From NCBI GenBank assembly GCA_033060915.1, contig CM065397.1, positions 35,057,501 through 35,121,500 on the forward strand: DNA of 64,000 bases, in the 5' to 3' direction. Under the pieces are notes generated by a model. That model did not search any database, had not been told where the DNA came from, and saw nothing but the letters and a program-made list of their open reading frames with translations. Both the position numbers and the translations under genes were made by a program. The stretch's first letter is position 1. The number at the start of each line of letters is the position of its first letter. Below are positions 1-64,000 of this stretch, in pieces. Source of the stretch: Euryodendron excelsum (Eukaryota; Streptophyta; Magnoliopsida; Ericales; Pentaphylacaceae).

Positions 1-2
1 CA

Positions 3-205
3 AATGAAGCCACACTACAGGAGAAAGATAAGCAAGACATTCTCTTATGCCAACAAGATGTGAATGAAGGATTGCTAAAAGAATGGAAGTTTGTTCACAA
101 CCATACAACAGAACAAATACTTGGTGATCCATTACAAGGGGTAAGGATAAGATCATCTCTTAGAAATGTTTGTAATCATCTTGTTTTTCTATCTTAAATT
201 GAAAT
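3..205 (+). pseudogene. copia-type pol fragment (integrase-RT linker)
   Basis: Reading from base 3, an open frame runs to a stop at about 195-197 and contains KEWKFVHNHT, then ILGDPLQGVRIRSSLRN and CNHLVFLS. This matches the linker between integrase and reverse transcriptase in plant Ty1/copia polyproteins, where an (I/L)GDP...GVxTRSSLR motif precedes RT. In the family the text continues ...FLSQIEP; here the Q codon reads TAA and the frame resumes with I-E before homology stops near 205. RT and RNase H are absent: at about 206 the sequence jumps into an Ogre-like LTR. With the envelope-like remnant at 4231-5773 this is read as one plus-strand SIRE/Maximus-type element whose left part lies outside the window. 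The copia assignment is firm; the SIRE clade rests on the downstream envelope-like region. Confidence 0.75.
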
Positions 206-1500
206 ATTTCAGTTTAGGAAATGTTTGAATTAAGAAAGTTTCAACTTAAGAAAGTCTTAAATTAAGAAAGTTTTGAGTTTAGAAAAATTTTAGATTTGAG
301 AAGATTTTGAAGTTTTGGAAAGTTTAGAATTTAGAAAGTTTTTAGGTTTAGAAAGATTTAACTTAAGAAAGTTTCAAATTTAGAAAGTTTTGAATTTGGA
401 AATATTTAAAATTTAGAAAGTTTTAGGGTTTTAGGAAATCTTGAGATTAGGAAAGGTTTGAGTTTTAGGAAAAGATTTGAAAGCTTGGATTTGAAAAATA
501 TTTTGGAAAGGGGTAGAATTAGGAAAGGGTTGAACTAGGAAAGATTTGAAAATTGAGTTTTAAAAATTAGGAAAGATTTTTATGTTCAAGTTTTGGAAAC
601 TTAAGATTTAGGAAAGTGGAAGTTTAGGAAGGATTTGAATTAGGAAAGATTTGGATTGTGAAATTTAAGGGAAGATTTAAGGTTTGGGTTTAGGAAACTT
701 ATGGTTTAGGAAGGAATTGAATTAAGAAAGGTTCGGATTAAGAAGGGGTTGGATTTGGTTTCTAAAAGAAAAGGTTTGATTTTGTTTGCAAAAACGGAGG
801 ACAGGATCTAGTTTTCTAAATGGGGAATTGGCTTTGATTTCCTAAAGGGAAGATAGGATTTGGTAAGGATTTGGAAAGGAGATTCTAAAACCCTAGATTT
901 GGAAAATCATAGTGTTGACGTGGAAAAAAGGTTTTGAAAACATGTATAGTTTGGATGTGAAAACTAGAGGTTTTGGAAACCTAGATTTGGGGCAAAGTTT
1001 GAAAATCATGTTTTTGGAAAGAAAATTAGGGTTTCCTAATTGGGGGCTCTAAGGCTTGACTTGGGCTCTAAGGAAAGAGTTTTTGGAAACGAAGGTTTTC
1101 TAGAAGGGAATTCCTAGGGAGGAGTTTTTGGAAAGTGAATTTGGAGAGGGAGTTTTTGGAAAGATTTTTCGAAAGAAGGAATTTTCGGAAAGATTTTTGG
1201 AAAGAAGGAGTTTTTGGAAAGTGTGTTTTTAGAAACGTAGATTTTAGAAGGAAAATCCTATAGGGGAATTTCTAGAAGGGAGATTTTGGAAAAGAGAGTT
1301 TTTGGAAAGATTTTTAGGGAGCGTTTTTAGAAAGTAGATTTTGGGGAGAAGATTTTGGAAAGGAGTCGAAAAAGGGAGTTTTGAAAAATAGATTTTGGAA
1401 ATAAGTTTTTGAAAACAATTTTTAGATAAGAGAGTTTTAGGAAAGTATGTTAAAAAAGAGATTTTTAGGAGGAAGGGATTTTTGAAGAGAGAGTTTTTGG
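206..1500 (-). repeat. degenerate GGAAAGTTTTGAATTA-type repeat domain of L1
   Basis: About 1.3 kb of loosely periodic purine-rich sequence (GGAAAGTTTT, GAATTAGGAAAG and variants every 15-25 bp), lying downstream of the TATA box in LTR sense. On the LTR sense strand it is pyrimidine-rich (CTTTCCTAAA). Short open frames here are composition artefacts. Confidence 0.8.
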
Positions 1501-2389
1501 AAAGTATAAAAACATCTCACTTTCCTAAAGCGATTCTAGCCATAAGAGGGCTAGAACCACTTTAAGAAAGTGGCTTTGAAAACAAGGTTTGAAAATATAG
1601 ACCAAAAGGTCACTTTTAATATAACACTTTCCTAAAGCAACCCTAGCCATGGAAAGGCTAGAATCACCCTAGAATTGTGGTTTTGAAAACAAGTTTTTGA
1701 AAAAGAGATTTTGATGCAATTTTGAAAAACAAGTTTGAAAACGGTTTTGAAAACGAGTTTGAAAATGAATTTTCGAAGATGCAAGACTATGATATGCACA
1801 ATGCAATTGGGGGTCGTGAACATACAAGGCTAAGGCTTCACCACATAATCATGGGGGCTGGACCCACGTGGTCTCTGGTTAGACTAAAAGAAAGCCCCCG
1901 ACACGGTGACTCTCCAACAGTCTAATCCTACACATGGACCGAAAGTCCCCTTGTTTCAAGCATGCAAAGAAAGGGGGGAAAAGAGATGGGGGATTAAAAT
2001 AGAGAAAACCCAAGTGGGTTGGAAGAGAGAAGAGAGAGGGGGGAAGTACAAAAAATTAAAGAGAAAACCTACCGTATGTCTTCTTTATTTTGCGCGCCGT
2101 GCTGTCTTCAATCTTCGGTCTTCATCTTGATCTTCTTCTTCAGTCTTCAAGAGTTGTCTTCAAGCTTTGGATGGTAGCTCTTCAAATCTTCAAAGGATGG
2201 TTGAAGGCTAGTGTATGAGTGTATGGGGGAGTGTATGAGTGTATAGGAGGCTAGGGTTTGTGTATGGTGGCTAGGGTTTGGGAGAATCTAGGGTGGCTAG
2301 GGTTTTTGGAGGTGCTCGAGCTTTGTATATCGAAATATAGGATTTTTAGGTTAAGTTTGCAGACCCTTTTCACGTTGAATGAGGCTATG

Positions 2390-2397
2390 TATTTATA
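2390..2397 (-). promoter_or_regulatory. TATA box of LTR L1
   Basis: The plus-strand text TATTTATA reads TATAAATA on the minus strand, in the context CTATAAATAC shared by most Ogre-like LTRs here. It sits just downstream, in LTR sense, of the GGCGCC palindrome cluster. It fixes transcription as leftward. Confidence 0.7.
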
Positions 2398-2411
2398 GAA
2401 GTTGGACAAAC

Positions 2412-2512
2412 CTGGCGCCTGTTGCAGTGGCATCAGGGCAAACTTTACACTAGCGCCACTAGGAGTGGCGCCAGGCCATTTTTTGGCTTGGCGCCACTAA
2501 TAGTGGCGCCAG
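2412..2512 (-). promoter_or_regulatory. GGCGCC palindrome cluster upstream of L1 TATA box
   Basis: At least four copies of (T/A)GGCGCC(A/T), some arranged as near-perfect dyads of the form TGGCGCCACTA...TAGTGGCGCCA. The same cluster precedes the TATA box in the sister LTRs. A regulatory role is inferred from position and conservation only. Confidence 0.5.
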
Positions 2513-2828
2513 CCAATTAGAAAAGATTTAAGGTCGGCAAGCAACGTATCTTTGACTAGATTTGGGCGCCTGTACTAGTGACTGCCATGTAATTTTTAGC
2601 CTGGCTTCACTAAGAGTGTCTCTGGAAAGTCCGGGAATGATTTGGAGGAGCCGGGAATGACTCGGAAGTCCGGGAATGATTTGGGTCAGAAAGGTTGACC
2701 GGGCCTTTAGGGGCAAAAGGGTCAATCGAACCGGAAAACTGCCGGGACAGACTTGGACTGTCCCGGAAGAAGACTTGGGATCTGGAAACATTATTTAGAA
2801 TGTTCCCAAAGGTTGCCGGTTTGATTTC

Positions 2829-3143
2829 CAAAGCCGGCGTGGTCGAAAAAGGAGACCGGCCCACCAGGGGTAAAACGGTCATTTTGCACCGGGTTGGCCG
2901 AAACTGACTCGGAATGATCCGGAAAGATAAAGGAAGGCTGAGAATACTATAAAAATTATTCTTGGGACATTACCGGTTTGATACCCAGAGCCGGTGTGGT
3001 CGAAGAAGGAGACCAGCCCTCCAGGGGCAAAACGGTCATTTTGTACCGAGTTGGCCGGAACTGACTTGGAATGATCCGAAAAGGTAAAAGGAGGTTGAGA
3101 ACACTATAAAAAGTATTCTTGGGACATTACCGGTTTGATACCC
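2829..3143 (-). repeat. 157-bp tandem units in the upstream region of L1
   Basis: The motif C(A/C)(G/A)AGCCGG recurs at 2829, 2986 and 3143, exactly 157 bp apart, giving two full units. Each unit carries GGGGCAAAACGGTCATTTTG and a small dyad built on AATACT...AGTATT. The same spacing occurs in the LTRs at 31305-36259 and 54309-59707. Confidence 0.8.
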
Positions 3144-3361
3144 AGAGCCGGTGTGGTTCCCGGAGCATTCAGATGTTTAGGGGCAAAATGGTCATCTTGA
3201 CCAAAAAGTCTCAGAAAAGGTCCAAAGGACAGTTTGGTCATTTTCCACCGAAGCGGGCTAACAGACACTGGTGCTGACCTGGGTTTTGAGTGTTTCCGCC
3301 ACTCTAAAGACGGTCGTCGTGACACAGGGATTTGTTGCCAATTCCCTATATCGACCTATTT

Positions 3362-3862
3362 GTGAGTATTTCCGCTACGCTAACGGTTTTGTGAGTATTT
3401 CCGCTACTCTAACAGTTTTGTGAGTATTTCCGCTACTCTAATGGCTTTGTAAGTATTTCCGCTACTTTTTGTGAGTATTTCCGCTACTCTAACTGTTTTG
3501 TGAGTATTTCCGCTACTCTAACGATTTTGTGAGTAGTTTCGCTACTCGGACCGTCTCGAGGGTGGAATAAACTGTCTCGAGAGAGGGATTGGAAAGGGGT
3601 CTTACCGTCTCCGAGGAGACGTGCCTGGGTTGGAACCGTCTCGAGGAATAAACTGTCTCGAGAGTGGGATTGGAAAGGGGTCTTACCGTCTCCGAAGAGG
3701 CGTGCCTGGATTGTGAGTGTTTCCGCCACTCTAACGGTTTTGTGAGTACTTCCGCTACTCTAACGGCTTTGTGAGTAGTTTTGCTACTCGAACGATTTTG
3801 TGAGTAGCTTTGCTACTCGAACCGTCTCGAGGAATAAACTGTCTCGAGAGAGGGATTGGAAT
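3362..3862 (-). repeat. composite minisatellite (29-bp and 81-bp units) of L1
   Basis: GTGAGTATTTCCGCTACTC units start at 3362, 3391, 3420 and 3449 (29-bp period), continue less regularly to about 3548, and reappear at about 3712-3818. Between and after them are two 81-bp units of the ACCGTCTCGAGGAATAAACT type. The array lies near the true 5' end of the LTR. Confidence 0.8.
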
Positions 3863-4059
3863 TGGAATAAGAAAGGACAATGCCCCTAAGGGCATTTTGG
3901 TCATTTTGCCTCTATTTGGGCCTGACAGGCCCGCGAAGCGATGGAAAGACAGAATTTGAACCTAGAGGATTGGTTTCGATTGGAATATGCCCAAAATGAC
4001 TTGAGAACAAGTCTGGACGGAGTGTAGACTGCCGAGTGGTCAAAAATGGGGTGCTTACA

Positions 4060-4230
4060 AATACCTCCTACTTTGCACCAAATCAGAAAAATGCTCTCTC
4101 TTTCTCTCTCTCGATCAACCATCACCCCAACTACTATCCACCAAAAATCTCTCATCCAACCTCTATAAAACCTAGATTCAAACCACATTGATCATTCGCC
4201 AATTGCTCTCAACCCCCATTGTAACCTCCA
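4060..4230 (+). other. copia interior between pol and envelope-like region
   Basis: Non-coding sequence following the end of L1, with a CT-rich stretch (about 4093-4115) and a CTATAAAAC string near 4161. It precedes the ATG of the envelope-like remnant. No protein match recognised. Confidence 0.4.
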
Positions 4231-5773
4231 ATGGCTCCAACAACCGCAATGCTAAAAAAAAAAAAAACCCCCCCAGTAAAGTCAACTCCCAAATCTAAGG
4301 GAGAAAAGAAGAGGAAAGAAAAGGGGAGTCTTCTAAGGCATCAAAGAAGAGGAAAGGAAAACAAATTGTGAAGGAAGAAGAAGATTTTCTCAAGGACAAC
4401 ATCTACTTCAAAAAATAATCCAATTGAGATAAATATGGTCAAGATTTCTCTTTTAAAGTTATTTTGAATGGTAGATAGATTGATTATACTTTCTTTGCCA
4501 AAGAGAAGTTTACTTTTGAATCTAAACTAGAAAAACTTGAATGAAAATCTATGACATTGTTAAAAGAGGATATGTATCATGAGTTGGTAGGATAAATTTA
4601 TGCTCATGTTGAAAATGAAATTGGGAAAGTGAACATACTGAGATATGTTAAAAGGATATCCATTACACTCACTAAGGGAGTAATTTGTAAAATTTTGGGT
4701 ATTAGTGCTGATGGAGAAATAGGACAAAAGAATATTAATAAATGTGCAGCCCTATCTCTTCTCATGGGGATGGACATCGCTGATGATAGTTTCCAACCCA
4801 TTACCAATGAACTCCCTTTAGAATTAAGGCTTGTCCACCATTTTGTGTGCCACATTCTTATTCTTAAGGGTGAAAAGTTTGAGTATATTTCTGACAAAGA
4901 GTTATTCTTCATGTGGACCTATTTGACTGAGACCAAGGTTGATTTGGCTGTCTCTATTTTGAACCATATGCTTAAGGCAACCAGGACAAAAGTGAGTTTG
5001 CCTTACGGGATGTTTTTGACAAGGATATTCCAACACTTCAAGGTTAACTTGTCTAAAAAAGGACTCTTGATCTCAACTCAGATGAGTATAATCAGAAGAC
5101 CTTATCTAGAATGACATATTTCTTTGATAACCAAACCAAGAAGTGGACCCTAAAGAAGGAAAGATGTGGTGGTGGTAGTACAACACCAAGGGCAAGAACA
5201 TTTGAAAGATGTGAATCTTCTAGAACTCCAAGGGAATTGTTTCCCATGGACTTTGTGTCTAGCAGCAGCTTTGTGCAAATGGAAATCTTGATGAAAATGA
5301 TGAAAGAAACGAAAAACGTACCAAGAGAAGACAAGAAAGTGGATAACGGTGCAACAAGGCTACTTTTTATTGAGAAAAATATGAGCGAACTTAGCAAAGC
5401 CTTTGTAACTGAGGGGAACAAGCTAAAAGAGGATATCTCCAATAACATTGCTATCTCAACTAAGCACATTAAAAAATGCATCAAGAAAATAGTTTGAGAT
5501 AAATACAAACCCCTCTACCTTGAAACAATAAAGTTTGTAGAAGAGGACTCTAGCACTGATGAGATGGATGAATCTACTGAAAGTGCTAACACCTCTCCTT
5601 ATCTATCTCAGCCATCACCTGCAGAATCATCTAATCCTTCTGGCCAAATCACTCCAAAGCCATCGCCAAACACTCACAAGTATGGTTTGAGGCAAAGAAA
5701 CCCAACCAAGTTTACCAACACTGCTTATGACCCTACTGATCTCTCCCAGACCCCGTCTCCCAAAACCAAATGA
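4231..5773 (+). pseudogene. envelope-like / 'plant transposon protein' ORF of a SIRE-type copia element, disrupted
   Basis: The remnant begins with ATGGCTCCAACAACC (MAPTT) and a lysine-rich N-terminus. The frame is broken by a stop near 4377, and a run of 14 A then 7 C at 4254-4274 is a slippage-prone site. The best conserved part, 4629-5114, includes ELRLVHHFVCHILI, DKELFFMWTYL, SLPYGMFLTRIFQHFKVNL. This pattern is known from plant envelope-like/putative transposon proteins carried between pol and the 3' LTR of SIRE/Maximus copia elements. The frame shifts near 5110 into 5111-5497 (DNQTKKWTLKKE...), and after one stop continues at 5564-5773 with a Ser/Pro-rich tail ending KYGLRQRNPTKF. Several stops and frame changes make it inactive. 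The protein's function is unsettled even in intact relatives; recognition is from memory of the family. Confidence 0.7.
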
Positions 5774-6300
5774 GCACTGCTATATTTGTATTTACATTTG
5801 CATTTGCTTTTTCTGAAAAATATTTTTTAATAGGATGGTGTGTCATCCTTTAGGATAAATATGTTTGTAATATTCTGTGGATGTTTTTTACTTTTTAACC
5901 TCTATGGATGCCTATTATATATAAATAGTTTATTTTCAATTACTTTGCCTCATCTTTGCAAAATTGATGAGAAGATTGATTATTGTATTTACATAAATAA
6001 TTATCTTATTGGGATGCTTGATTGGCATCAATTATGTTTCAGTAAAATTTATAGCAGTGCCATATTGCATAAGAATGGGGGAGCAAAAGTATTTATGCTC
6101 CGAACCTCTGAATAACAACTAATTTTGTTGATTGTTTCACTCTGAACCTGGAAAATGCTTTGAAGCATAAAACACAAAATGAAGGGGGAGAAAATTTCTA
6201 GTATGAAGCTTTGATTTATTGATTTTCTCTGTTATTGCACAATGTTTAATCCATTAGACTTTGAGCATATTGTCCATATTAATTGAGGTTTTTTCATCAT
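5774..6300 (+). other. copia 3' non-coding region upstream of PPT
   Basis: AT-rich sequence between the envelope-like remnant and the 3' LTR. It holds two extra purine runs resembling polypurine tracts (about 6073-6083 and 6179-6193). A 91-residue open frame at 5840-6115 is hydrophobic, low-complexity and matches nothing I recognise. Confidence 0.5.
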
Positions 6301-6315
6301 AAAAAAGGGGGGAGA
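6301..6315 (+). other. polypurine tract of the copia element
   Basis: AAAAAAGGGGGGAGA, followed by T and then TGTTGACTCC, the start of the 3' LTR. A G-rich purine tract joined to TGTTG is the usual copia PPT/3' LTR junction and gives plus-strand orientation. Confidence 0.8.
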
Positions 6316-6316
6316 T

Positions 6317-6883
6317 TGTTGACTCCATGCATTAATTTTGACGATTACAAAACATGGTTCAGTGATCTAATAACTCTACTTAGTGTACAGATTATATTAT
6401 GCCTTAATTTCAATTAAACTATGACTTGAAGCTTGACACATTGAATATATTGAAGAACTTCTGTGTTTAGAAGCTTGACAAGGACATGTGAAGACCTAGA
6501 CTTGAAAAAGAGATCGACATCACTAAAAAAGATATCAACAATAAAGAGAAGAAGGTCGGCAGCTATTTTGGAGGAATTGACACCTTCTACAATATGACAT
6601 AACAAGATTAGAAAAAGGATATCAGCAACAATTAAAAGGTGATCGGCAACAATGAGAAAAAGGTCAGCAATCAGTATTGACACCTAACTCAAAGATGCTG
6701 ATAATTTAAAGAATGGAAGATCAGTTGAAGAAATGATCACAAGACTTGGAAGCTCTCTTGAAGATTTTGGTAAAGTCTTGGGTCAATGAAAGAAGTGATA
6801 TTAATTGAAGAACCCTACAAGTAATCAAAGTGGATTGATTTTATCTCAAAGTGATTGAAGGTGTTCTTGGAGGTCAACACACC
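6317..6883 (+). mobile_element. copia (SIRE-type) 3' LTR, left part
   Basis: It starts TGTTGACTCCATGC directly after the PPT and is interrupted at 6884 by an Ogre-like solo LTR. The last five bases before the insertion are ACACC. The LTR resumes at 14116. Its matching 5' LTR lies left of the window. Confidence 0.7.
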
Positions 6884-7899
6884 TGTCGCGCCTCGATTTT
6901 TCGCACCCAAAAAGATAAGTGAGAAAAACACAGTGCTCTCTCGTTAGAACTCATCCTTCTAGAAGGACGAATGAGATTAGGTTTGACTTTGAAATTGATT
7001 TTGAACAAGGGCTTTTGGAAAATAATTTGAAGTTGCCACCTAATTTGATTAAGGTGAGTTAGGTCACTTAAAAACTAAGCACAATCTGAAGATTACACTT
7101 AGGATTTTTGAAAACAATTTTGAAAATTTCCTTAAGAGAGGGTTTTTAAGAAAAGAGGTTGTTTGGCAACCTTCAAAAAAATTTAAGCCCTTTCTTGAAA
7201 ATAACTCCATTCGGTATTTGAAAACAGTGATCTAGGCTCGAAGGTTGGTTACGTATAGGGAAGATGCACTAAGCCATCACCCTATCCCACCCTTGCGATA
7301 CCTACGTGTCTATTCACCCAAGATTCACTCATTAGAGTCTTTGATTAATAAATATCTAAAACTATCCACTTTGAAAAGAATTTTGAAAAGATCTTTAACA
7401 TGATGCATGATATGCAAGTGCAAGAATAAAACTTGATTTTGAAAACAGATATGAAAAGAACTTGATTTGAATTTAAATGAATTTAAAAAGATAAATTTGA
7501 TTTTGAAAGAAAGTTTTAGAAATTGAAAATAGAGATTTGAAAATGGATTTTTGGAATTGGAAGTTTGAAAATAGTTATAGAATTGGAAACTTGAAAAAAG
7601 GTTGTGGAATTGGAGATTTAAAAAAAGTTATGACCGCACCCGTGAGGGTTGCCTACGTATTCCTTTTTGGGAATCAGGTCAGTCGTAGTTTGGATAAGAG
7701 TCCGATAGAAAATTTGATTCGAAAAGAGTTTGATTTGAAACTTAGATTTGAAGATTGAAAATTGAACTTTGATTTGAAATTGACTTGGAAGATTTGAAAA
7801 TATTGAACTTTCATTTAAAATAGAACTTGAGGATTTGAAATAGACCTTAGAATTAACTTTGAACTTGGTTTGGAAACATAGAGTTTTGAAAACATATTG

Positions 7900-9110
7900 A
7901 CTTGAATTGACATTTGAAAAACCATCTTGGTTTAAAAAAGAACTTTTGGAGAAGAGTTGGAAGCTTCCTAACTTTAGGGTTAGGGTTGAACTAGCGTTTA
8001 GATATCCTAGGACTTAGGGTAACCTAGGGTTGAAACATGTAATTGAATTGAATTGAACTTGAGAAGTTTTGTTTTAGAAAAGTTTGGTTTTGGAAAACCT
8101 AGACTTGGGAAAGATAGGACCTAGGAAAAACTTGAGATTAAAAAAGATTTGATTGGAAAATTTGACTTAGAAAACATGGAGAGTTGGAGTCTATGAAAGA
8201 TTGAATTTAGAAAATCTTGAAATTAGAAAAGTTTCAAAATAGGAAAGTTTCGTTTTAGGAAAGTTTCATTTTAGGAAAGTTTTGAATAGGAAAGGTTTTG
8301 AAATTGGAAAGTTTTGAATTTAGAAAGTTTCAACTTAAGAAAGTTTTGAATTTGGAAAGTTTCCGTTTCAGGAAATATTTGATTAGGTTTCAGAAAGATT
8401 TGAAATTTAAAAAGTTTTAGAATTAGGAAAAGTTTGGGTTTAGAAAGATTAAGAAGCTTAAATTTTAAGGAAAGATTTGAAAGTTTAAGTTTTGAAAACA
8501 TAAGATTTAGGAAGGTATGAGATTAGGAAGGATTGGAATTAATAAAGATTTGGATTAGGAAGGATTTGATTTCTATTAAAAGATTGGATTTTATTTTCAA
8601 AAAGACAAGATTTGATTTTGTTTTAAAAAATAGAGGATTTGATTTAGTTTAAAAAATAAAAGATTTGATTTAGTTTCCAAAAACGACAGATTTGATTTGA
8701 CATAGAATTGGAAAGGTGGAGTTGTGGAAATCTTAGATTTGGAAGGATATTGATATGATATGAAAAATAGGATTTGAAAATCCGTAGATTTTGGTATGAA
8801 AAATAGGTTTTGGAAATCTAAGATTTGACGTAGAAAATAGAGATTTTGGAAATCTATGTTTTGAGGCAAGATTGAAAATCACGTTTTAGGAGAGAAAATT
8901 AGGGTTTTCTTACCATGGCTCTAGGATTCGACTTGAACTCCAAGAAAAAAGGATTTTGGAAAATAGATCCTTTCGCAAAGAAAAATTTTTAGGAAAGAGA
9001 TTTTTGAAAAGGATTTTTAGGAAAGTAAGTTTGAAAATAGATTTTTGAGAAGATTTAAAAAGAGGTTTTGGAAAGTAAGTTTGAAAGGAAATTTGGAAAA
9101 GGATTTAAAT
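7900..9110 (-). repeat. degenerate GGAAAGTTT-type repeat domain of L2
   Basis: About 1.2 kb of GGAAAGTTTTGAA / TTAGGAAAG variants, purine-biased on the plus strand. No coding content beyond short composition-driven frames. Confidence 0.75.
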
Positions 9111-9650
9111 GTGTACTTTTACAAGCCTCTAAAAACATCTCACTTTCCTAAAACTATTCTAGCCATAAGCAAATTAGAACCATTCTAGGATTGTGATTTT
9201 GAAAATAACAACGATTTGAAAATATGGACCATGATAATTATTTTGAATGTAACACTTTCCTAAAGCAATCCTAACCATGGAAATGCTAGAATCACCTTAG
9301 AATTGTGATCTTGAAAATAAGTTTGGAAAAAGAAGATTTAATGCAAGTTTTGAAAAAGATTTTTGATGCAAGTTTTGGAGAGATGCACGATCATGATATG
9401 CATAATGCAAGTTGAAGTCGTGAACATACAAGGTTAAAGGATTCACCACATAATCAAGGGGGCCAAACCCACGTGATCTCCGGTTAGACTAAGAGAAAGC
9501 CCCCGACACGGTGACTTTCAATAGCTTAATCCTACACATGAACTGGGGAGTCCCTTGTTTCAAGCATGCAAGAAACGGGGGGTAGAAGATGGGGATTAAA
9601 ATAGAAGAAAACCCAAGTGGGTTAGGAGAGAGAGAATAGAGAAGGAGGGT

Positions 9651-9674
9651 GGGGGGGGGGGGGGGGGGGGGGGG
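9651..9674 (+). repeat. 24-base poly-G tract
   Basis: An uninterrupted run of 24 G preceded by GGAGGGT, where sister LTRs have only short G runs in a GAGAGGGGGGAA context. This suggests slippage expansion in this copy. It is poly-C in LTR sense. Confidence 0.85.
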
Positions 9675-9996
9675 AGAATTGCATAAACGTAAATAGGAAG
9701 CCTACCTTGTGTCTTCTTTGTTTCACTTGCTTGTTTTACTTGTTTTGTTTGCTTTGCTTGTTTTGCCTTAGTCTTCGAGAGCTTCCAAGTTGCAACACTT
9801 TAAGTCTTCAATGGAGGCTTTGGAGGCTTGAATATTATGTATAAGAGTGTATATAGTCTACGGTTTAGTATATAGGGGCTAGGATTTCAAGAACCTAAAG
9901 AGAGCTAGGGTTTGTAGAGGCTTCGAGCTCTATATATCAAAGAGCAGAGTTTTTAAACTGTGTTTGTGGACCCTTTTCACGCTGGAAAAGGCTCTG

Positions 9997-10004
9997 TATT
10001 TATA
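9997..10004 (-). promoter_or_regulatory. TATA box of LTR L2
   Basis: TATTTATA on the plus strand (TATAAATA in LTR sense), in the conserved context GGCTCTGTATTTATAGA. GGCGCC-type sites nearby have partly decayed to TGGCACC forms. Confidence 0.65.
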
Positions 10005-14098: not shown

Positions 14099-14115
14099 AA
14101 AATGGGGTGCTTACA

Positions 14116-40823: not shown

Positions 40824-40827
40824 CATC

Positions 40828-46888: not shown

Positions 46889-46896
46889 TATTTATA
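46889..46896 (-). promoter_or_regulatory. TATA box of L10
   Basis: TATTTATA on the plus strand, in TAGTATTTATAGAC. No GGCGCC cluster is recognisable upstream in this subfamily copy. Confidence 0.6.
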
Positions 46897-52424: not shown

Positions 52425-52432
52425 TATTTATA
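52425..52432 (-). promoter_or_regulatory. TATA box of L11
   Basis: TATTTATA on the plus strand; GGCGCC-type palindromes follow at 52448-52552 in partly decayed form. Confidence 0.65.
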
Positions 52433-53830: not shown

Positions 53831-54829
53831 TGGACCGAACAATGCCCCTAAGGGCATTTTGGTCATTTTGTCTCTATTTGGGCTTGGGAGGCCCGCGAAG
53901 CGATGGATAGACGGGATTAGACTTAGAGAGTTGATTTTGATTAAATACGTCCATATTGACTTGAGTACAAGTCTGGACGGACCGTAGAGGTGCTTACAAT
54001 CTTAAATCGTCAAGTTAGCGAAAACACTCGTAAACATCACAACCATTAGAGTGGCGGAACACTTGTAAACAAGTCGGCATTGGGAATTGTCAACAAACCG
54101 TTGTGTCACAGGACCACTATCAGAGTGACGAAAACACTCAAAACCCGGTCAACACCAGTGCCTGCTAGCCCACTTCGGTAAAAAAATAACTAAACTGCCC
54201 CTAGGGCTATTTTCGGCATGTTCCTCGAGAAAGTATCTAAGTCTTTAGAACGCGAAGTCCACCCTTCCAAGATTGTTCTAAAGACAATCCGGCATGATTA
54301 GGTGCCTTTGTCGCGCCCAGATTTTTCGCACCCGAGGAATACTCACCCAAGCGGGAAAAATGCTGTACTCTCTCATTAGAACTCACCCTCCTAGAAGAAT
54401 GAGTGCGATTAGGTTTGAATTGAAAACAAGTTTGAATAAAGGGCTTTTGAAAAAGGTTCGGAGTCGCCACCTAACTTGATTAAGGTGAGTTAGTTCACCT
54501 AACAACTAAGAATAATCCGAAGACTACACTTAGGGTTTTGGAAAACGATTTTGAAAAACATCTCCTCAAGAGAGGGTTTTAAGGAAAACAGGTTGTTTGG
54601 CAACCTTTTGAAAACATTTAGCCCTTTTTGAAAAATAACTCCGTTTGGTCTTTGAAAACAGTGATCCTAGGTTCGGAGGTTGATTACGTGTAGGGAAGAT
54701 GCACTAAGCTATCACCCTACCCCGCCCTTTCAGTACCTACATGTCAATCTACCCTAGATTCACCTATGAGAGTCTTGAATTAACAAATGGTCGATCCTAC
54801 TCACTTTAGAAAAACAATGTTTGAAAAAT

Positions 54830-56950
54830 ATGATGCATGATATGCAAGTGCAAGATGAGAGAATTGGAACATAGAAATTGATTTGAAAAGAAATTGATTT
54901 GATTTGAAAATAGATTTGAAGAAATAGAATTGAAATTGAAAAGTTTGAAAATTGAAAGCAGAAGTTTGAAAATAGAAATTTTGGAATTTTGAAAATAGAT
55001 TGGAATTTGAGATTTGAAAAGATTTTAGAAACCGCACCCATGAGGGTGGAATTGAAAGTTTGAAAAGTATTGTAACCGCACCTATGGAGGTTGCCTACGT
55101 ATCCCTTTGGGAGAATCAGGTCAGTCGTAGTTCGGACCGGAGTCCGATTGAAAATAGAAGAGTGAATTTGAAGAAGGAGATTGAATTGGAAATTGAATTT
55201 GATTTGAAATTGGAAGAGGAGATTAGAAATTGAAATTGAGAAGATTGGACTTTGATTTGAAAAGATAGATTTGGACTTGTTTTGGAAAAGAAAAGGTTTA
55301 AGAAACCTGAACTTAAGAAAGATGAGATTTAGGAAAGACTTGACTCGATTTGGAAGATTTAGGAGATTAGGAAAGATTGGATTTAGGAAATGTTCAAATT
55401 AGGAGAGTTCCAAATTAAGAAAGTGTCATTTTAGGAAAGTTTCGAATTAGGAAAGTTTCAACTTAGGAAAGCTTTGAATTTGGAATGTTTCAACTTTAGG
55501 AAAGTTTTGAATTAAGAAAGTTTTGAATTTAGGAAAGTTTTGAAAATTTGGAAAGTTTTGAAAATTGGAAAGTTTTGAATTTAGAAATGTTTTGAAAAAG
55601 GGAAGTTTTGAATTTGGAAAGTTCTGAAAATTGGAATGTTTTGAAAATAAGAAAGTTTTGTTTTAGGAAAGATTTGAAAAAGAAAAGTCTTCGGTTTAGG
55701 AAATGTTTGAATTAAGAAAGTTTCAACTTAAGAAAGTCTTAAATTAAGAAAGTTTTGAGTTTCGAAAAGTCTTAGATTTGAAAAGAGTTGAAGTTTAATA
55801 AAGTTTAGAGTTTAGAAAGTTTTTAGGTTTCGAAAGATTTAACTTAAGAAGGTTTCAAATTTAGAAAGTTTAGAATTTGGAAAGATTTGAAATTTAGAAA
55901 GTTTAGGATTTAGAAAGTTTTAGAGTTTGAATTTTAGAAAGTCTTGAAATTAGGAAAGGCTTGAGTTTAGGAAAGGTTTAAAAGCTTGAATTTAGAAAGT
56001 TAAGATTTGGAAAAGGGGTTGAATTAGGAAAGATTTGAAAGTTGAGTTTTAAAATTTAGGAAAGATTTTTATGTTCAAGGTTAGGAAACTTAAGGTTTAG
56101 GAAAGTGAAAAATTAGGAAGGATTTGAATTAGGAAAGAGTTGGGTTTTGAAAGGGATTGGATTTTGTTTTGAAAAGAGAAAGTTTGATTTTATTTCCAAA
56201 AACGAAGGATAGGATCTAGTTTCCTAAACGGGGAGATTTGATTTGGTTTCCTAAAGGGAAGATAGGATTTGGAAAAGGAGATTATAGAAACCCTAGATTT
56301 GAAAAATTGTAGTTTTGACGTAGAAAATAGGTTTTCGAAACATGTATAGTTTTGATGTGAAAACAAGAGGTTTTGGAAACCTAGGTTTGGGGCAAAGTTT
56401 GAAAATCATGTTTTTGGAAAGAAAATTAGGGTTTCCTAATTGTGGGCTCTAAGGCTTGCCTTGAGCTCTAAAGAAAGAGTTTTTGAAAAGTGCGTTTTTA
56501 GAAATGAAGGTTTTCTAGAAGGGAATCCTAGGAAGGAGTTTTTGGAAAGTGAATTTGGAAAGAGAGTTTTTGGAAAGATTTTTGGAAAGAAGGAGTTTTT
56601 AGAAAGTGTGTTTTTGGAAACATAGATTTTAGGAGGAAAAATCCTAGAGGGGAGTTTCTAGAAGGAAGATTTTTAGAAAGAGAGTTTTTTAGAAAGATTT
56701 TTGGAAGGAGATTGTTGGAGAGAGTTTTTTAGGAAAGTAAATTTAGGAAGTGTTTTTAGAAAGCGAATTTTGGGGAGAAAGAGTTTTTGGAAAGGAGTAG
56801 AAAAAGAAAGTTTTGAAAAATAGATTTTGGAAGGGAGTTTTTAGAAAACAATTTTGAAGAGGAGAGTTTTAGGAAAGTATGTTAAAAAAAGAGATTTTTA
56901 GGAAGGGATTTTTGAAGAGAGAGTTTTTTGGAAAGTATGAAAACGTCTCA
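54830..56950 (-). repeat. degenerate GGAAAGTTTTGAATT repeat domain of L12
   Basis: About 2.1 kb of imperfect short repeats, purine-biased on the plus strand. The stretch 55690-56100 closely matches the left edge of L1 (206-620). Confidence 0.8.
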
Positions 56951-57836
56951 CTTTCCTAAAGCGATTCTAGCCATAAGAGGGCTAGAACCACTTTAAGAAA
57001 GTGGTTTTGGAAAACAATAAGATTTGAAGATATAGACCAAAAAGGTCACTTTTAATGTAACACTTTCCTAAAGCAACCCTAGCCATGGAAAGGCTAGAAT
57101 CACCCTAGAATTGTGGTTTTGAAAACAAGTTTTTGAAAAAGAGATTTTGATGCAATTTTGAAAACAAGTTTGAAAACGTTTTCAAAAACAACTTTGAAAA
57201 CGGTTTTTGGAAGATGCAAGACTATGATATGCACAATGCAATTTGGGGGTCGTGAACATACAAGGCTAAGGCTTCACCACATAATCAAGGGGGCCGGACC
57301 CACGTGGTCTTTGGTTAGACTAGAAGAAAGCCCCCGACACGGTGACTCTCCAATAGTCCAATCCTACACATGGACCGGGAATCCCCTTGTTTCAAGCATG
57401 TAAAGAAAGGGGGGGAAAGAGATGGGGGATTAAAATAGAGAAAACCCAAGTGGGTTGGAGAGAGAAGAGAGGGGGGAAGTACGGAAAATTAAAGAGGGAG
57501 CCTACCTTGTATCTTGTTTATTTTGCGCGCCGTGCAGTCTTCGGTCTTCGGTCTTGATCTTCGTCGTTCGTCTTCAAGAGTTATCTTCAAGCTTCGGGTT
57601 GCAGCTCCTCCAGTCTTCAAAAGATGGTTGAAGGCTAGTGTATGAGTATATGGGGGAGTGTGTAAGTGTATAGGAGGCTAGGGTTTGTGTATGATGGCTA
57701 GGGTTTAGTGTAGGGTGGCTAGGGTTTGGAGAACCTAAGGAAACTAGGGTTTTTGGAGGTGCTCGAGCTCTGTATATCGAATTGTGTGATTTCTAGGTAA
57801 AGTTTGCAGACCCTTTTTACATTGAACGAGGCTCTG

Positions 57837-57844
57837 TATTTATA
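57837..57844 (-). promoter_or_regulatory. TATA box of L12
   Basis: TATTTATA on the plus strand, in GGCTCTGTATTTATAGAGG. Confidence 0.7.
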
Positions 57845-57858
57845 GAGGGAAGACAAAC

Positions 57859-57961
57859 CTGGCGCCTGTTGCAGTGGCGCCAGGCCAAATTATACACTGG
57901 CGCCACTAGGAGTGGCGCCAGGCCATTTTTTGGCTTAACGCCACTACTAGTGGCGCCAGCC
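57859..57961 (-). promoter_or_regulatory. GGCGCC palindrome cluster of L12
   Basis: Five GGCGCC sites in about 100 bp, including CTGGCGCCACTAGGAGTGGC and an ACGCCACTACTAGTGGCGCC dyad. It is the least decayed cluster here, consistent with a younger insertion. Confidence 0.5.
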
Positions 57962-58330
57962 ATTTAGGAAACAATTAAGGTCGGCAAGCAACGTATCTTT
58001 GACTAGATTTGGGCGCCTGTACTAGTGACTACCATGTAAATTTTAGCCTGGCTTCACTAGGAGTGACTTCGGAAAGTCCGGAAATGATTTGAAGGAGTCG
58101 GGGATGACCCGGAAGGCCGGAAGGGAGCAGGAACACTTAAAATAGTGTCTTGGAGGTATTTGACTTGAAAAGTGAGGATAAGATGTGTCGAAAAGGTTGA
58201 CCGAGCCTATAGGGGCAAAACGGTCAATCGGACTAAGAAACTACCGGGGCAAACTCGGATTGTCCCGGAAAAAGACTTGGGATCTGGAAACATTATTTAG
58301 AATGTTCCTAGAGGTTGCTGGTTTGATTTC

Positions 58331-58645
58331 CAGAGCCGGCGTGGTCAGAAAAGGAGACCGGCCCACTAGGGGCAAAACGGTCATTTTGTGCCGGGTTTGC
58401 CGGAACTGACTCTGAATGGTCTAGAAAGGTAAAGGAAGGTTGAGAATACTATAAAAAGTATTCTTGGGACATTACCAATTTGATACCCAGAGCCGGTGTG
58501 GTCGAAGAAGGAGACTAGCCCTCTAGGGGCAAAACAGTCATTTTGTACCGGGTTTGCCGAAACTGACTCGGAATGGTCCGGAAAGGTAAAGGAAGGTTGA
58601 GAATACTATAAAAAGTATTCTCAGGAGGTTACCGATTTGATACCC
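58331..58645 (-). repeat. 157-bp tandem units of L12
   Basis: CAGAGCCGG at 58331, 58488 and 58645, exactly 157 bp apart; two units. Confidence 0.85.
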
Positions 58646-58813
58646 AGAGCCGGTGTGGTTCCCGGGGCATTCAGATGCTTAGGGGCAAAATGGTCATCTT
58701 AACCGAAAAGTCTCGAAAAAGGTACTAAGGGTAGTCTGGTCATTTTTCACCGAAGTGAGCTAACAGACACCGGTGTTGACCTGGGTTTTAAGTGTTTCCG
58801 CCACTCTCACGGT

Positions 58814-59500
58814 GTGAGTATTTCCGCTACTCGGACGAGGTTGATGATTTGTGAGTATTTCCGCTACTCGGATGGGGTTGATGATTTGTTAGTATTTCCG
58901 CTACTCGGACAGGGTTGAGTATTTCCGCTACTCGGACGGGGTTGATGATTTGGGAGTATTTCCGCTACTCGGACGAGTTTGAGTATTTTCGCTACTTTAA
59001 CGGGTTTGTGAGTATTTTCGCTACTCTAACGGTTCTGTGAGTACTTCCGCTACTCTAACGGTTCTGTGAGTATTTCCGCTACTCTAACGGTTTTGTGAGT
59101 AGTTTTGCTACTCTGATGGTTCTATGAGTATTTTCGCTACTCTAACGGTCCTGTGAGTATTTCCGCTACTCTAACGGTTCTGTGAATATTTCCGCTACTC
59201 TAACGGTTTTGTGAGTAATTTTGCTACTCGGACCGTCTCGTGGAATAAACTGTCTCGAGAGTGGGACTGGAAGGGGTCTTACCATCTCCGAAGAGACGTG
59301 CCTGGATTGGAGCTGTTTCAAGGAATAAACTGTCCCGAGAGTGGGATTGGAAAGGGGTCTTACCGTCTCCGAAGAGACGTGCCTGGATTGTGAGTGTTTC
59401 CGCCACTCTAACGGTTTTGTGAGTGTTTCCGCCACTCTAACGGTTTTGTGAGTAGTTTTGCTACTCGGACCGTCTCGAGGAATAAACTGTCTCGAGAGAG
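58814..59500 (-). repeat. 29/37-bp and 81-bp composite minisatellite of L12
   Basis: GTGAGTATTTCCGCTACTC units occur with an inserted GGACGGGGTTGATGATTT segment (37-bp spacing at 58814, 58851, 58888) and then without it (about 29-bp spacing) to about 59225. Two 81-bp units follow, then more 29-bp units and a final partial 81-bp unit. Confidence 0.8.
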
Positions 59501-60057
59501 GTATTGGAATTGGGATAAGAAAGGACAATGCCCCTAAGGGCATATTGGTCATTTTGCCTCTATTTGGGCCTAACAGGCCCGTGAAGTAATGGAAAGACGG
59601 AATTTGGACCTAGAGGGTTAGTTTCGATTGGAATATGTCCACAATGGCTTGAAAACAAGTCTGGACGGAGTGTAGATTGCCGAGCGGTCAAAAATGGGGT
59701 GCTTACAGCCTTCTAGTCAGTTTCGGGCCAATTTTGAGACCATCCAGTCAAAATGACCATTTTGCCCTTAGGCATTTGAGTGCCTCGGGAACCACATCGG
59801 CTCTCGGTATTAAACCGGTAACCCTTTGGTGATGCTTTTACTAGTATTCCCTATCGTTTGATGCATTTTTTAATTATTCTGAGTCAATTCCGGCAAGCCT
59901 GATACAAAATTATCGTTTTGGCCCTAGTGGGCCGATTGCTTTTTCTAACCACACCAGTTATGTGTATCAATCCGGTAACCTCTTGGAACATTCTATGTAA
60001 TGTTTCCAAGCCTTGAGTCTTCTTCTGAGATATTCCAAGCCAATTTAGTTTTCTATC

Positions 60058-60065
60058 TATAAATA
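60058..60065 (+). promoter_or_regulatory. TATA box of E3 5' LTR
   Basis: TATAAATA in CTATCTATAAATACAGAGCC. It lies in the uninterrupted right part of the LTR and would drive rightward transcription into the E3 interior. The upstream promoter region is split by three insertions, and no GGCGCC cluster precedes it directly. Confidence 0.7.
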
Positions 60066-60879
60066 CAGAGCCTCCTCCAGCGTGAAGAGTGTCTGCAAAC
60101 ACAGTCTAAAAACTCTGCTCTTCGATATAGAGCTCGAAGCCTCTCCAAACCCTAGCTCTCTTTAGGTTCTCCAAACCTTAGCCCTTATACGCTTAACCCT
60201 AGCTCACATACACTCTTATACACTCATATACAAGCCTCCATTGAAGACTTGAAGTGCTGCAACTTGGAAGCTCTCAAAGACCGAGGCAAAGCAAACAAAG
60301 CAAGCAAGCAAAACAAAGAAGACAGAAGGTAGGCTTCCTATTTACGTTTAAGCAATTTCCCCCCTCTCTTCTCTTTCCTAACCCACTTGGGTTATCTTCT
60401 ATTTTAATCCCCATCTTCTACCCCCCTTTCTTGCATGTTTGAAACAAGGGACTCTCAGGTTCATGTGTAGGATTAGGCTATTGAAATTCATCGTGTTGGG
60501 GGCTTTCTCTTAGTCTAACCGAAGACCACGTGGGTTCGGCCGCCTTGATTATATGGTGAAGCCTTTAACCTTGTATGTTCACGACCCTAACTTGCATTGT
60601 TCATATCATGATCATGCATCTCTCTAAAACTTGCTTTCAAACTCGTTTTCAAAACTTGCATTGAAAATCGTTTTCAAAACTTGCATTAAATCTTCTTTTT
60701 CCAAACTTATTTTAAAAATCAAAATGCTAGGGTGATTCTAACCTTTCCATGGTTAGGGTTGCTTTAAGAAAGTGTTGCATTTAAAGTGACTTTTATGGTC
60801 CATATTTTCAAATCTTTATTGTTTTCAAAACCATAACCCTAGAATAATTCTAATCCCTTCATGGTTAGAATCATTTTAG

Positions 60880-62400
60880 GAAAGTGGGATATTTTTAAAG
60901 ACTTGTAAAAGTGCACATTCAATTCTCTTTCCGAATTACTTTTCAAACTTACCTTCCAAAACTTCCTTTTTAAATCCTCTCCAAAATCTCTTCTCCAATA
61001 TACTTTCTAAAAACTCTCTCCAATCTCTTTTCCAAAATTGCTTTCTAAAAATTGATTTCTAAAAATTCCCTTCAAAAAACTTACTTTCCTAAAAATTCTT
61101 TTCAAATTCCTTCCCACAAGCTCTTTTGAAAAATTCACTTTCTAAAAACTCTCTTCAAGTTTCCTTCCTAGAAACTCACTTCAAAATATCTACTTTCCAA
61201 AATCTGTTTTTCTTGAAGCCCAAGTCAAACCCTAGGGCCAATGTTTAGAAAACCCTAATTTCCACTTTCCTTTTCCGGTTCAAATCATAGATTTCAAAAA
61301 TTCTATTTCTTACATCAAACTCTTAGGTTCCTAAAACTATTTTTCAATGTCAAATAATATTTTCTAAATCCAAGTTTTCCAAATCTCATCATTTCCAATT
61401 CCATGTCAAATCTAGCCCTCCAACTTAGAAAACTAAATCAAATCTTCCGTTTTTTAAACTAAATCAAATCCTCCATTTTTGGAAACAAAATCAAATCATC
61501 GCTTTTTAGAAATAAAATTTAATATTTTATTTTAAGAAATAGAAATCAAATCTTTCCTAATCCAAATCTTTCTTAATTCCAATCCTTCCTAATCTCATAC
61601 CTTCCTAAATCTTAAGTTTCTAAAACTTAAGCTTTCAAATCTTTCCTTAAACTTTAAACTTCTTAATCTTTCTAAACCAAAACTTTTCCTAATTCTAAAA
61701 CTTTCCAAATTCGAAACGTTTCTCAAACCTAACCAAATCTTTCCTAACAAGGAAACTTTCCAAATTTGAAACTTTCTTAAGTTGAAACTTTCTAAATTCA
61801 AAACTTTCCAATTTCAAAACCTTTCCTATTCGAAACTTTCCTAAAATGAAACTTTCCTAATTCGAAACTTTCCTATTTTGAAACTTTTCTGATTTTAAGA
61901 TTTTTTAAATTTAATATTTCATAGACTCCAACTCTCCATGTTTTCTAAGTCAAATTTTCCAATCAAATCTTTCTTAATCTCAAGTCTTTCCTAAGTCCTA
62001 TCTTTTCTAAGTCTAGATTTTCCAAAACCAAACTTTTCTAAAACCAAACTTCTCAAGTTCAAGTCAATTCAATTACATGTTTCAACCCTAGGTTACCCTA
62101 AGTCCTAGGATGTCTAAACCCTAGTTCAACCCTAACCCTAAAGTTAGGAAGCTTTCAACTCTTCTCCAAAAGTTCTTTTCTAAACCAAGATAGTTTTTCA
62201 AATGTCAATTCAAGTTAAGATGTTTTCAAAACTCCATGTTTCCAAATCAAGTTCAAATTCAATTCTAAGGTCTATTTCAAATCCTCAAGTTCTATTTTAA
62301 ATCAAAGTTCAATCTTTTCAAATCTTCCAAGTCAATTTCAAATCAAAGTTCAATTTTCAATCTTCAAATCTAAGTTCCAAATCAAACTCTTTTCAAATCA
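60880..62400 (+). repeat. degenerate CTTTCCTAAA repeat domain of E3 LTR
   Basis: About 1.5 kb of pyrimidine-biased imperfect repeats with AAACTTTCCTAAA cores. It is followed by the GAACTACGATTGACCTGATT and GGATGCATAGGCAACCC blocks (about 62423-62470). Confidence 0.75.
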
Positions 62401-63233
62401 AATTTTCTATCAGACTCTTGTCTGAACTACGATTGACCTGATTTCCAAAAAGGGATGCATAGGCAACCCTCACGGGTGCAGTCATAACTTTTTTTTAAAT
62501 CTCGAATTCCACAACTTTTTTTCAAGTTTCCAATTCCATAACTATTTTAAATTTCCAATTCCAAAAATCTATTTTCAAATCTCTATTTTCAATTTCTAAA
62601 ACTTTTTTTCAAAATTAAATCTATCTTTTCAAATCCATTTCAAATCAAATCAAGTTCTTTTCAAATCTGTTGTCAAAATCATGTCTTATTCTTGCACTTG
62701 CATATCATGCATCATGTCAAAGATCTTTTCAAAATTCTATTCAAAAGTGGATAGTTTTGGACATTTATTAATCAAAGACTCTAATGAGTGAATCATGGGT
62801 GAACAGACACGTAGGTAACGCAACGGCGGGGTAGGGTGATGGCTTAGTACGTCTTCCCTACGCATAACCAACCTCCAGACCTAGATCACTATTTTCAAAA
62901 ACCAAATGGAGTTATTTTCAAGAAAGGGCTTAAATTTTTCAAAAGGTTTTCAAACAACCTCTTTTCTTAAAAACCCTCTCTTGAGGAAATTTTCAAAATT
63001 GTTTTCAAAAACCCTAAGTGTAATTTTCGGATTGTGCTTAGTTTTTAGGTGACCTAACTCACCTTAATCAAGTTAGGTGGCAACTCCAAATTGCTTTTCA
63101 AAAGCCCTTGTTCAAAATTAATTTCAAAATCAAACCTAGTCGCACTCACCCTTCTAGGAGGATGAGTTCTAATGAGAGAGCACTATGTTTTTCTCACTTG
63201 TCTTTTTCGAGTGCGAAAAATTGGGGCACGACA

Positions 63234-64000
63234 GTTGGCGACTCTACTGGGAACAGTTAGAGGGTTAGGCCATTGTCATGTCTTTTCACCCTTCACCCAT
63301 GTAGAGTCTTTAATTAATTTGTTCAATCCTATCCACTCCAGAATTTTCAAAATCAAATTTTCAAAGTTGTTTTCAAAAACATACATCTAATTTATTTCCA
63401 TTCATATTATCTTGTATTAAGTTTGTTATCTGCATAATAACTGTTGCATATTTATTTTGTAGGTGGATTTTTATACACGTTTTGTTTAATTTCATGCTAA
63501 CTGCTCTACATATTATGAATGTATGGAATGGACAGGAAGGATAGGAGTTGTTGGGCATTTTTCTCCAATTTTCAAAAATCACACACGCACTGCACGTGCA
63601 CTTGCATTCTACATATTTGCATTCTCTACCCTGATTTGTCCCTTCCAGTTAGAAGGGGGAACGACATATTGGTTATGGGCAAGATGTTGTGTCAGTTTCT
63701 TCGCATACGGCCTCTTGATGGTCCCTCGCTCGGATCACCAACCAATCATGGCACCACCTCAGGGAGTGGGCCTAGGTTTGAAGATCTGGGAACCGAGCCT
63801 TCTTAGGACGCATTAGTAAACCCTCAATCTCATGCTCATATAGACACCGTGCATAGCTGAACCTCTGCTAAATTTAAGACACGCGCACTGATTTCAAAAC
63901 CATGGAGTGGCCCCAATCCCTCCATGCTCACAAAGATAGGATTGCCAAGAAGACAAGGGCAATCAATCAACAAGGTCTCTTAGCGACCTCCTCAACGTCA
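63234..64000 (+). mobile_element. E3 interior: 5' leader, continuing beyond window
   Basis: It matches the leaders of E1 and E2: TTAGAGGGTTAGGCCATTGTC, GGAGTTGTTGGGC, CGCTCGGATCACCAACCAATC, ATAGCTGAACCTCTGC and ATTGCCAAGAAGACAAGGGC. The overlapping open frames at 63519-63816 lie in this leader; the E1 and E2 copies do not keep them open, so I do not call a gene. Any gag-pol would start right of the window. Confidence 0.75.
63236..63253 (+). other. primer-binding site of E3
   Basis: TGGCGACTCTACTGGGAA starts two bases after the LTR end CGACA. It is the tRNA-Arg type, with small differences from the E2 site. Confidence 0.82.

What the first reader, a model, noticed from the sequence alone, without database searches (positions are those of the whole stretch)
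1..64000. Whole window is a retrotransposon nest up to four layers deep, dominated by one giant-LTR family
LTR ends and target duplications resolve at least ten LTR copies of a single Ogre-like family plus three other LTR elements, with copia-in-Ogre, Ogre-in-copia and gypsy-in-Ogre order. The deepest path is E1 > copia > L2 > gypsy-type solo LTR. The layers give a relative order of insertions without a molecular clock.
Basis: partly seen in the sequence, partly recalled or inferred. Interest (0 to 1): 0.75.

Follow-up and report, generated by a model that had tools for sequence, protein, structure and literature searches.

The report
Nested plant retrotransposons with giant LTRs
This stretch of a plant chromosome is almost entirely old jumping genes that landed inside one another, which is ordinary for plants; less ordinary is that its main family seems to carry only the gene for the particle shell, while relatives that share its ends carry the copying enzymes without the shell gene.

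Summary
The nest is real. Nine insertions lie wholly in the window; all have TG...CA ends and 5-bp target duplications (5 exact, 4 with one mismatch; random TG/CA pairs reach that in 2% of cases). Where a sister copy exists, joined flanks restore host sequence. Twelve LTR copies or parts of one Ogre-like lineage and three other LTR elements are present.

Corrections: (1) the LTR reads TGTAAGCACC...GGCGCGACA, then the PBS. (2) 'E1 > copia' is not supported: the copia's 3' LTR is cut short against E1's 5' LTR without a TSD, and its intact 5' LTR, outside the window, sits in another LTR (H0). Four layers exist, but as H0 > copia > L2 > solo LTR. (3) It is one lineage, not one family (LTR identities 68-93%).

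Beyond the claim: E1/E3/E5 elements are gag-only. Seven pieces of a neighbouring 25-kb element (E4: RT-RH-aRH-INT) match none of the eight gag-bearing copies examined; E4 and two similar copies lack the capsid part of gag. E1, E4 and E5 share LTR ends, a PBS position and a PPT. Complementary non-autonomous partners are likely; whether complete elements exist elsewhere could not be tested.

The parts
1..14148 (+). copiaA, SIRE-like Ty1/copia, 3' half; its 5' LTR starts at -13055 outside the window; 3' LTR 6317-6883 plus 14121-14148, cut short at 14148
   Evidence: 5' LTR 84.5% identical; joined 3' LTR 506/594 to the 5' LTR; integrase-side domains just left of the window; PF20167-like ORF 4596-5114, below the cut-off
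190..4059 (-). c1, Ogre-lineage LTR inserted in copiaA; 5' end intact at 4059, 3' part missing (left edge approximate)
   Evidence: LTR start motif without mismatch at 4042-4059; copia sequence on both sides
6884..14115 (-). L2 (c2), solo Ogre-lineage LTR in the copia's 3' LTR, TSD ACACC/ACATC
11529..14098 (+).
14149..15894 (+). c3, 3' part of E1's 5' LTR, 5' part deleted at the junction with copiaA; degenerate PBS follows
   Evidence: 83-88% to c8; sequence 14149-14212 matches Ogre-lineage LTRs. Scripts used 15889 as its end; the CA is at 15894 by the sequence
16630..21089 (-). c4, solo LTR in E1, TSD CTTGT/CTCGT
21090..23128 (+). E1 internal region with gag remnant (continues at 30343)
   Evidence: Retrotrans_gag E 1.6e-4, below the cut-off; about 70% DNA identity to E3 and E5 gag
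23129..30342 (-). E2, shortened element in E1's gag: 5' LTR c6 24692-30342, PBS and leader, last 272 bases of the 3' LTR (c5), TSD GTGAG
31305..36258 (+). c7, solo LTR in E1, TSD CCAAT
36909..38211 (+). 1,303-bp copia-like solo LTR in E1 (TGTTGG...CCAACA), TSD ACAAG; superfamily and strand not tested
38212..40827 (+). E1 3' region with tandem repeats, then PPT just before 40828
   Evidence: similar to E5's array and 3' end; sequence
40828..43910 (+). c8, E1's 3' LTR up to the E3 insertion
43911..64000 (+). E3: 5' LTR c11 (43911-63233 with three inserts), PBS, start of internal region; gag lies just right of the window
   Evidence: gag
44011..48741 (-). c9b, solo LTR in c11, TSD TAGAC/TAGAT
49242..53998 (-). 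c9, solo LTR in c11, TSD ATCGT/ATCTT
54309..59707 (-). c10, solo LTR in c11, TSD GCCTT

Best explanation
Two nests of plant LTR retrotransposons that meet at a deletion junction at 14148/14149. Left: an Ogre-like LTR (H0, outside the window) holds a SIRE-like copia, whose 3' LTR holds solo LTR L2, which holds a 2.6-kb solo LTR. Right: E1, a gag-only giant-LTR element of the Tat/Ogre lineage, holds c4, E2, c7, a small solo LTR and E3; E3's 5' LTR holds three more solo LTRs. Shown: insertion with TG...CA ends and 5-bp TSDs, and restored flanks where a sister exists. Inferred: solo LTRs arose by recombination between the two LTRs of each element; the deletion at 14148/14149; and that E1/E3/E5-type elements moved with enzymes of E4-type relatives that share LTR ends, PBS and PPT.
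For: TSDs 9 of 9 within one mismatch; joined flanks; the copia's 5' LTR and its host H0 outside the window; no near-identical second copy of E1's LTR start among 40 scored of 4,885 candidates, next best 80%; LTR-pair K2P agrees with nesting for E2 (0.031) in E1 (0.126) and E4 (0.043) in E5 (0.130); gag in E1, E3, E5 and no match to seven E4 pieces there; five further gag-type copies without pol; shared PBS, LTR ends and PPT.
Against: c7 and the 1,303-bp solo have TSDs only; the c4 joint is gappy. E5 (0.130) lies in E3 and so in E1 (0.126), so the clock does not resolve that step. H0 is compared over only 162 columns. E1's middle part does not align with E5, so its lack of pol could be a separate loss. 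E1's gag match is under the Pfam cut-off.
Confidence: 0.85

Rival explanations
1. One reading: E1's 5' LTR hosts the copia and the whole window is one four-layer nest in E1.
For: The copia's 3' LTR directly abuts E1's 5' LTR; E1's LTR family lacks part of the LTR in which H0 could be compared, so only 162 columns are informative.
Against: The flank of the copia's intact 5' end matches E1's 3' LTR start in 90/162 columns against 88.5% for E1's own pair; the copia's right end is truncated and has no TSD.
Confidence: 0.08
2. E1, E3 and E5 are not a gag-only family; each lost pol by separate deletions.
For: E1's middle part does not align with E5; deletions are common here (E2, c1, the 14148 junction).
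Against: E3 and E5 share about 4 kb at 81% including sequence after gag; L044, L048 and L050 run from E5's gag region across its later part without pol pieces.
Confidence: 0.1
3. Parts of the layering are assembly artefacts.
For: Highly repetitive sequence; a 1,500-base N run lies at 132501-134000 right of the window.
Against: No N in the window; exact or nearly exact TSDs and gap-free joints.
Confidence: 0.03

Closest known systems
Ogre clade of the Tat lineage, Ty3/gypsy (Neumann 2019, PMC6317226; passages and section 13 seen)
   Same: Giant LTRs (up to about 5 kb there), large non-coding parts with tandem repeats, 5-bp TSDs, aRH between RH and INT in E4.
   Different: The window's elements carry gag but no pol; E4 is 25.35 kb with an 8.9-kb 3' LTR, beyond the about 24 kb and 5 kb stated there.
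Cereba/Quinta of einkorn wheat (PMC11302176; passages seen) and Sabrina/WHAM/Wilma of wheat (PMC9744471; passages seen)
   Same: A gag-bearing partner without RT and INT that shares LTR ends, PBS and PPT-side motifs with a pol-bearing partner.
   Different: There the pol-bearing partner encodes gag as well; here E4, L045 and L063 lack the capsid and zinc-knuckle part.
BARE2 of barley (named in a passage of PMC9744471) and TR-GAG elements (search listing only)
   Same: BARE2: gag disrupted, other genes present. TR-GAG: terminal repeats with gag only.
   Different: Not known to form a reciprocal pair in one lineage as suggested here; sizes of TR-GAG were not read.
Nested plant LTR retrotransposons (Jedlicka 2019, PMC6911290; abstract and section 7 seen)
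   Same: Nesting into older members of the same lineage.
   Different: That survey finds LTRs least often hit; here many hits lie in LTRs, but LTRs make up 75% of the window, so no targeting is implied.

Membership tests
Ogre clade (Tat) | aRH domain between RH and INT (shared by Ogre and Retand) | tested here: met
   Met by E4, outside the window: RVT_1, RT_RNaseH, RVT_3, Integrase_H2C2, rve in that order. The window's elements have no pol, so they join only through LTRs, PBS and PPT.
Ogre clade (Tat) | RT phylogeny separating Ogre from Retand | not tested
   No tree was made. LTRs of 4.5-5.7 kb argue against Retand (315-1,194 bp in PMC11963269, passage seen).
Ogre clade (Tat) | PBS complementary to its tRNA | not testable with these tools
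   PBS TGGCGACTCCACTGGGG seen; its tRNA is recalled, not compared.
Ogre clade (Tat) | Plant mobile domain in an extra ORF (57% of Ogre in PMC6317226) | tested here: inconclusive
   Weak antisense match in E5, 22.9 bits against a cut-off of 34.9.
One LTR family (80% identity rule, recalled) | LTR copies at least 80% identical over most of their length | tested here: not met
   Aligned parts 68-93% identical; c9b and the E1 pair align to the long copies over a small part only.
SIRE clade, Ty1/copia (copiaA) | Extra ORF in sense between pol and the 3' LTR (74% of SIRE in PMC6317226) | tested here: inconclusive
   An ORF related to PF20167 (38.9 bits, cut-off 45) lies before the PPT-like run and 3' LTR; copia integrase-side domains upstream; RT not seen.
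Gag-only partner (Quinta-like) | gag present, RT and INT absent | tested here: met
   8 of 8 gag-bearing copies lack matches to seven E4 pieces in the stretch read (E1, E3 to its interruption, E5, L044, L046, L048, L050, L064).
Gag-only partner (Quinta-like) | LTR ends, PBS and PPT shared with a pol-bearing partner | tested here: met
   Same ends, PBS and PPT in E4 and E5; 76% over the first 1.4 kb and 75% over the last 1.2 kb of the inside. E1's own PBS is degenerate.
Gag-only partner (Quinta-like) | Partner is autonomous, with its own gag | tested here: not met
   3 of 3 pol-type copies examined (E4, L045, L063) match P0014 only from residue 197-234 onward; complete copies elsewhere not excluded.

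The most novel reading that the evidence does not exclude
The giant-LTR lineage of this genome is a split retrotransposon: many gag-only copies (capsid and zinc knuckle) and a younger, more uniform set of pol-only copies (protease-RT-RH-aRH-INT without capsid) that share LTR ends, PBS and PPT, so that neither kind could move without the other and no complete element is left.
Probability: 0.3. Interest if true: 0.7.

Novelty: new variant of a known kind. Interest (0 to 1): 0.42.

Why it matters
The nest itself is textbook plant genome structure; it shows that base-exact layering can be read from sequence and then confirmed, and where it goes wrong (a truncated end mistaken for an insertion). 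The gag-only giant-LTR family and the capsid-less pol family matter more: if no complete element exists, a plant retrotransposon lineage would persist as two mutually dependent halves, a step beyond the known helper and parasite pairs, and its nested, datable copies could show when the split happened.

Tried and rejected
Doubt raised and withdrawn: after I took 6879 for the end of the copia's 3' LTR and L2 for lying beside it.

Insertion-orientation bias: in E3's 5' LTR all three inserts are antisense, but my own tally over the 184 kb, read by eye, is 8 antisense and 6 sense among 14 insertions of the lineage into itself. Rejected.

Local excess of solo LTRs: LTR 3' ends followed by a PBS are 5 of 19 here (ends with more than five mismatches are not listed) and 13 of 37 usable of 38 places elsewhere (L038 had no readable end; L006 and L007 were misplaced and re-read); Fisher p 0.56. 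Rejected. The 38 places are the best matches to one LTR, not a random sample.

LTR targeting: LTRs make up 75% of the window, so many hits in LTRs need no targeting.

E4's gag piece against E5's gag: no match, but these turned out to be different parts of gag; replaced by mapping on P0014.

No result: Rfam and tRNA scans of the window; E5 gag protein look-up. The copia ORF gave four ENA fragments; the E4 piece gave 252 proteins, 120 listed, many from named plants. Paper searches of little use. Of 13 internal regions fetched elsewhere, four could not be typed (L041, L047, L049, L065; L047 has one 402-column E5-like piece) and two only in part (L042, L043). The host species was not identified.

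Never answered: the search for H0's LTR start, the E4 leader-to-protease junction search, the P0014 search, and single tries.
Full report
What was checked. The window (38.2% GC, no N) was compared with itself, LTR ends were read, and each claimed insertion was tested by its ends, its target duplication and the continuity of its joined flanks. Coordinates are window coordinates; negative numbers and numbers above 64000 lie outside it.

Orientation. The giant LTR begins TGTAAGCACCCCATTTTT and ends GGGCGCGACA. After it come two bases and TGGCGACTCCACTGGGG, the PBS; before the 3' LTR comes a PPT such as AAGACAGAAAAAGAGGGGCAGC. That this PBS is the type used by Ogre-like elements is recalled; no tRNA was compared.

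Insertions. Nine lie wholly in the window, all with TG...CA ends; five have exact 5-bp TSDs and four have one mismatch, where random TG/CA pairs give 0.0018 (exact) and 0.023 (at most one mismatch). c9b, c9 and c10 cut out of c11 leave flanks that align to sister LTR c2 with no gap within 15 bases of the joint (187/233, 254/300 and 257/300 identical columns). The 2,570-bp solo LTR cut out of L2 does the same against c4 (130/162), though only 12 bases lie on one side. More distant sisters did not always span the joint (c10 for c9, c6 for c10, c9 for the solo in L2). L2 cut out of the copia leaves flanks that match the copia's own 5' LTR in 506 of 594 columns. E2 sits in E1's gag: the last 68 bases before it and the first 126 after it match E5 at 2822-2889 and 2886-3012. 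c4 in E1 is weaker: E2's inside spans the joint with gaps, E3's does not span it. c7 and the 1,303-bp solo have only their exact TSDs.

The copia and E1. The copia's 5' LTR starts at -13055 and is 84.5% identical to 6317-6879. Its left flank is an Ogre-like LTR, H0 (-18273 to -13056), itself holding a 4,875-bp solo LTR with TSD GGCAT. H0 matches E1's 3' LTR start in 90 of 162 columns, no better than it matches c7 (92/164) or c2 (89/163), whereas E1's own LTR pair c3/c8 is 88.5% identical. A genome search with the first 473 bases of E1's 3' LTR gave itself at 100% and then 80% and less (4,885 first-look candidates, 40 scored). The copia's 3' LTR stops at 14148, where its 5' partner runs on, and from 14149 the sequence matches Ogre-like LTRs. 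So a deletion seems to have fused the copia nest to E1; the copia is in H0 and not shown to be in E1. The chain H0 > copia > L2 > solo LTR has four layers; counted inside the window alone the depth is at most three.

Clock. K2P between LTR pairs: E1 0.126 (0.104-0.155), copiaA 0.129 (0.096-0.162), E5 0.130 (0.114-0.149), E4 0.043 (0.036-0.051), E2 0.031 (0.018-0.044, 261 sites). Nesting and divergence agree for E2 in E1 and for E4 in E5; E5, which lies in E3 and so in E1, ties with E1. E2's two LTR parts are closer to each other than to c10 over the same stretch (0.031 against 0.098 and 0.103). That the LTR at 120834 is E5's 3' LTR is inferred from its being nearer to E5's 5' LTR than to c11.

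One lineage, several families. Aligned parts of the LTRs are 68-93% identical; groups are c1/c5/c6/c7/c10, c2/c11, c4, c9, and two outliers, c9b and the E1 pair, which align to the long copies over a small part only. By my layer coordinates 89% of the window is of this lineage and 75% is LTR. First-look candidates for a 501-base LTR piece number 13,365 in the genome, 40 of them scored.

Gag without pol. E1 gives a Retrotrans_gag match just under the cut-off (E 1.6e-4); E3 (5.5e-6) and E5 (7.8e-7) pass it. Seven stop-free pieces of E4, which together cover protease-side sequence, RT, RH, aRH and INT, find nothing in the window, E3 or E5 at E 1e-3; besides E4 itself they find one other element at 100301-102642. 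E5 is read from PBS to PPT, 9,236 bases without a 5,211-bp solo LTR that has TSD AGTAT. E3 is read for 4.6 kb, to where E5 interrupts it; the two share about 4 kb at 81%. E1's middle part does not align with E5. Elsewhere, 13 PBS-bearing internal regions were fetched, 5.5 kb each from about 1.5 kb after the LTR: five carry E5-type gag without pol (L044, L046, L048, L050, L064), two show E5-type sequence in part (L042, L043), two carry pol (L045, L063), four could not be typed (L041, L047, L049, L065). Six further gag places, read for 1.5 kb on each side, show no E4 piece (L067, L068, L070-L073).

Pol without capsid. On P0014, a 642-residue gag-protease protein of Nicotiana sylvestris, gag-type copies match from residues 4-7 up to at most 257, and E4, L045 and L063 match from 197-234 onward; the zinc-knuckle part of P0028 is matched by gag-type copies only. 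In L045 and L063 the distance from the LTR to this point equals E4's to within about 80 bases, which leaves no room for a capsid part. First-look candidates: 3,436 for the gag query, the 39 best others 86-91% identical; 1,611 for the RT query, the 39 best others 95-97%. Only 40 were scored each time and candidates are not confirmed copies, but the pol-type looks younger. Whether complete elements exist was not tested: the search was sent eight times and never answered.

Known relatives. Neumann 2019 (PMC6317226; passages and section 13 seen) places aRH between RH and INT in Ogre and Retand. Retand LTRs are 315-1,194 bp in PMC11963269 (passages seen), so the giant LTRs favour Ogre. Gag-bearing partners without RT and INT are described for Quinta with Cereba (PMC11302176, passages) and for Sabrina and WHAM with Wilma (PMC9744471, passages); in both, by those passages, the partner encodes gag too. 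In the listings of my searches I saw no description of a lineage in which the pol-type lacks the capsid while the gag-type lacks pol; that is a small search. PMC9258317 (passages) cites Jedlicka for about a quarter of nested pairs in which the host looks younger than its insert, a warning for any clock used here.

Verdict. A real, well-resolved, ordinary kind of nest, with one unsupported link and one over-broad family claim; its more interesting content is the division of gag and pol between two kinds of giant-LTR element.

Noticed in passing
window coordinates 71421-96771 (L014-L017, right of the window): Full-length element E4, 25,351 bp, TSD GCACA; its 3' LTR (8,906 bp) holds 52.5 copies of an 81-bp repeat and its 5' LTR (5,422 bp) 9.5 copies, although the rest of the LTRs differs by K2P 0.043, so the array changed length after insertion.
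   Followed up: partly
28886-30145: The same 81-bp repeat in LTR c6 has 15.6 copies at 92% match; c7 has 2.5.
   Followed up: partly
27991-28095 and 32617-32709: About 38-bp repeats with inverted GGCGCCACT/AGTGGCGCC motifs in two LTRs.
   Followed up: no
window coordinates 99303-102642 (right of the window): Another element with RT, RH and integrase-like sequence, 30-39% identical to E4 pieces.
   Followed up: no
L019:4246-4674, minus strand: Weak antisense match to the plant mobile domain (PF10536), below the cut-off, in E5 between gag and the PPT.
   Followed up: no
48236-48422: 48-bp tandem repeat, 3.9 copies, inside solo LTR c9b.
   Followed up: no
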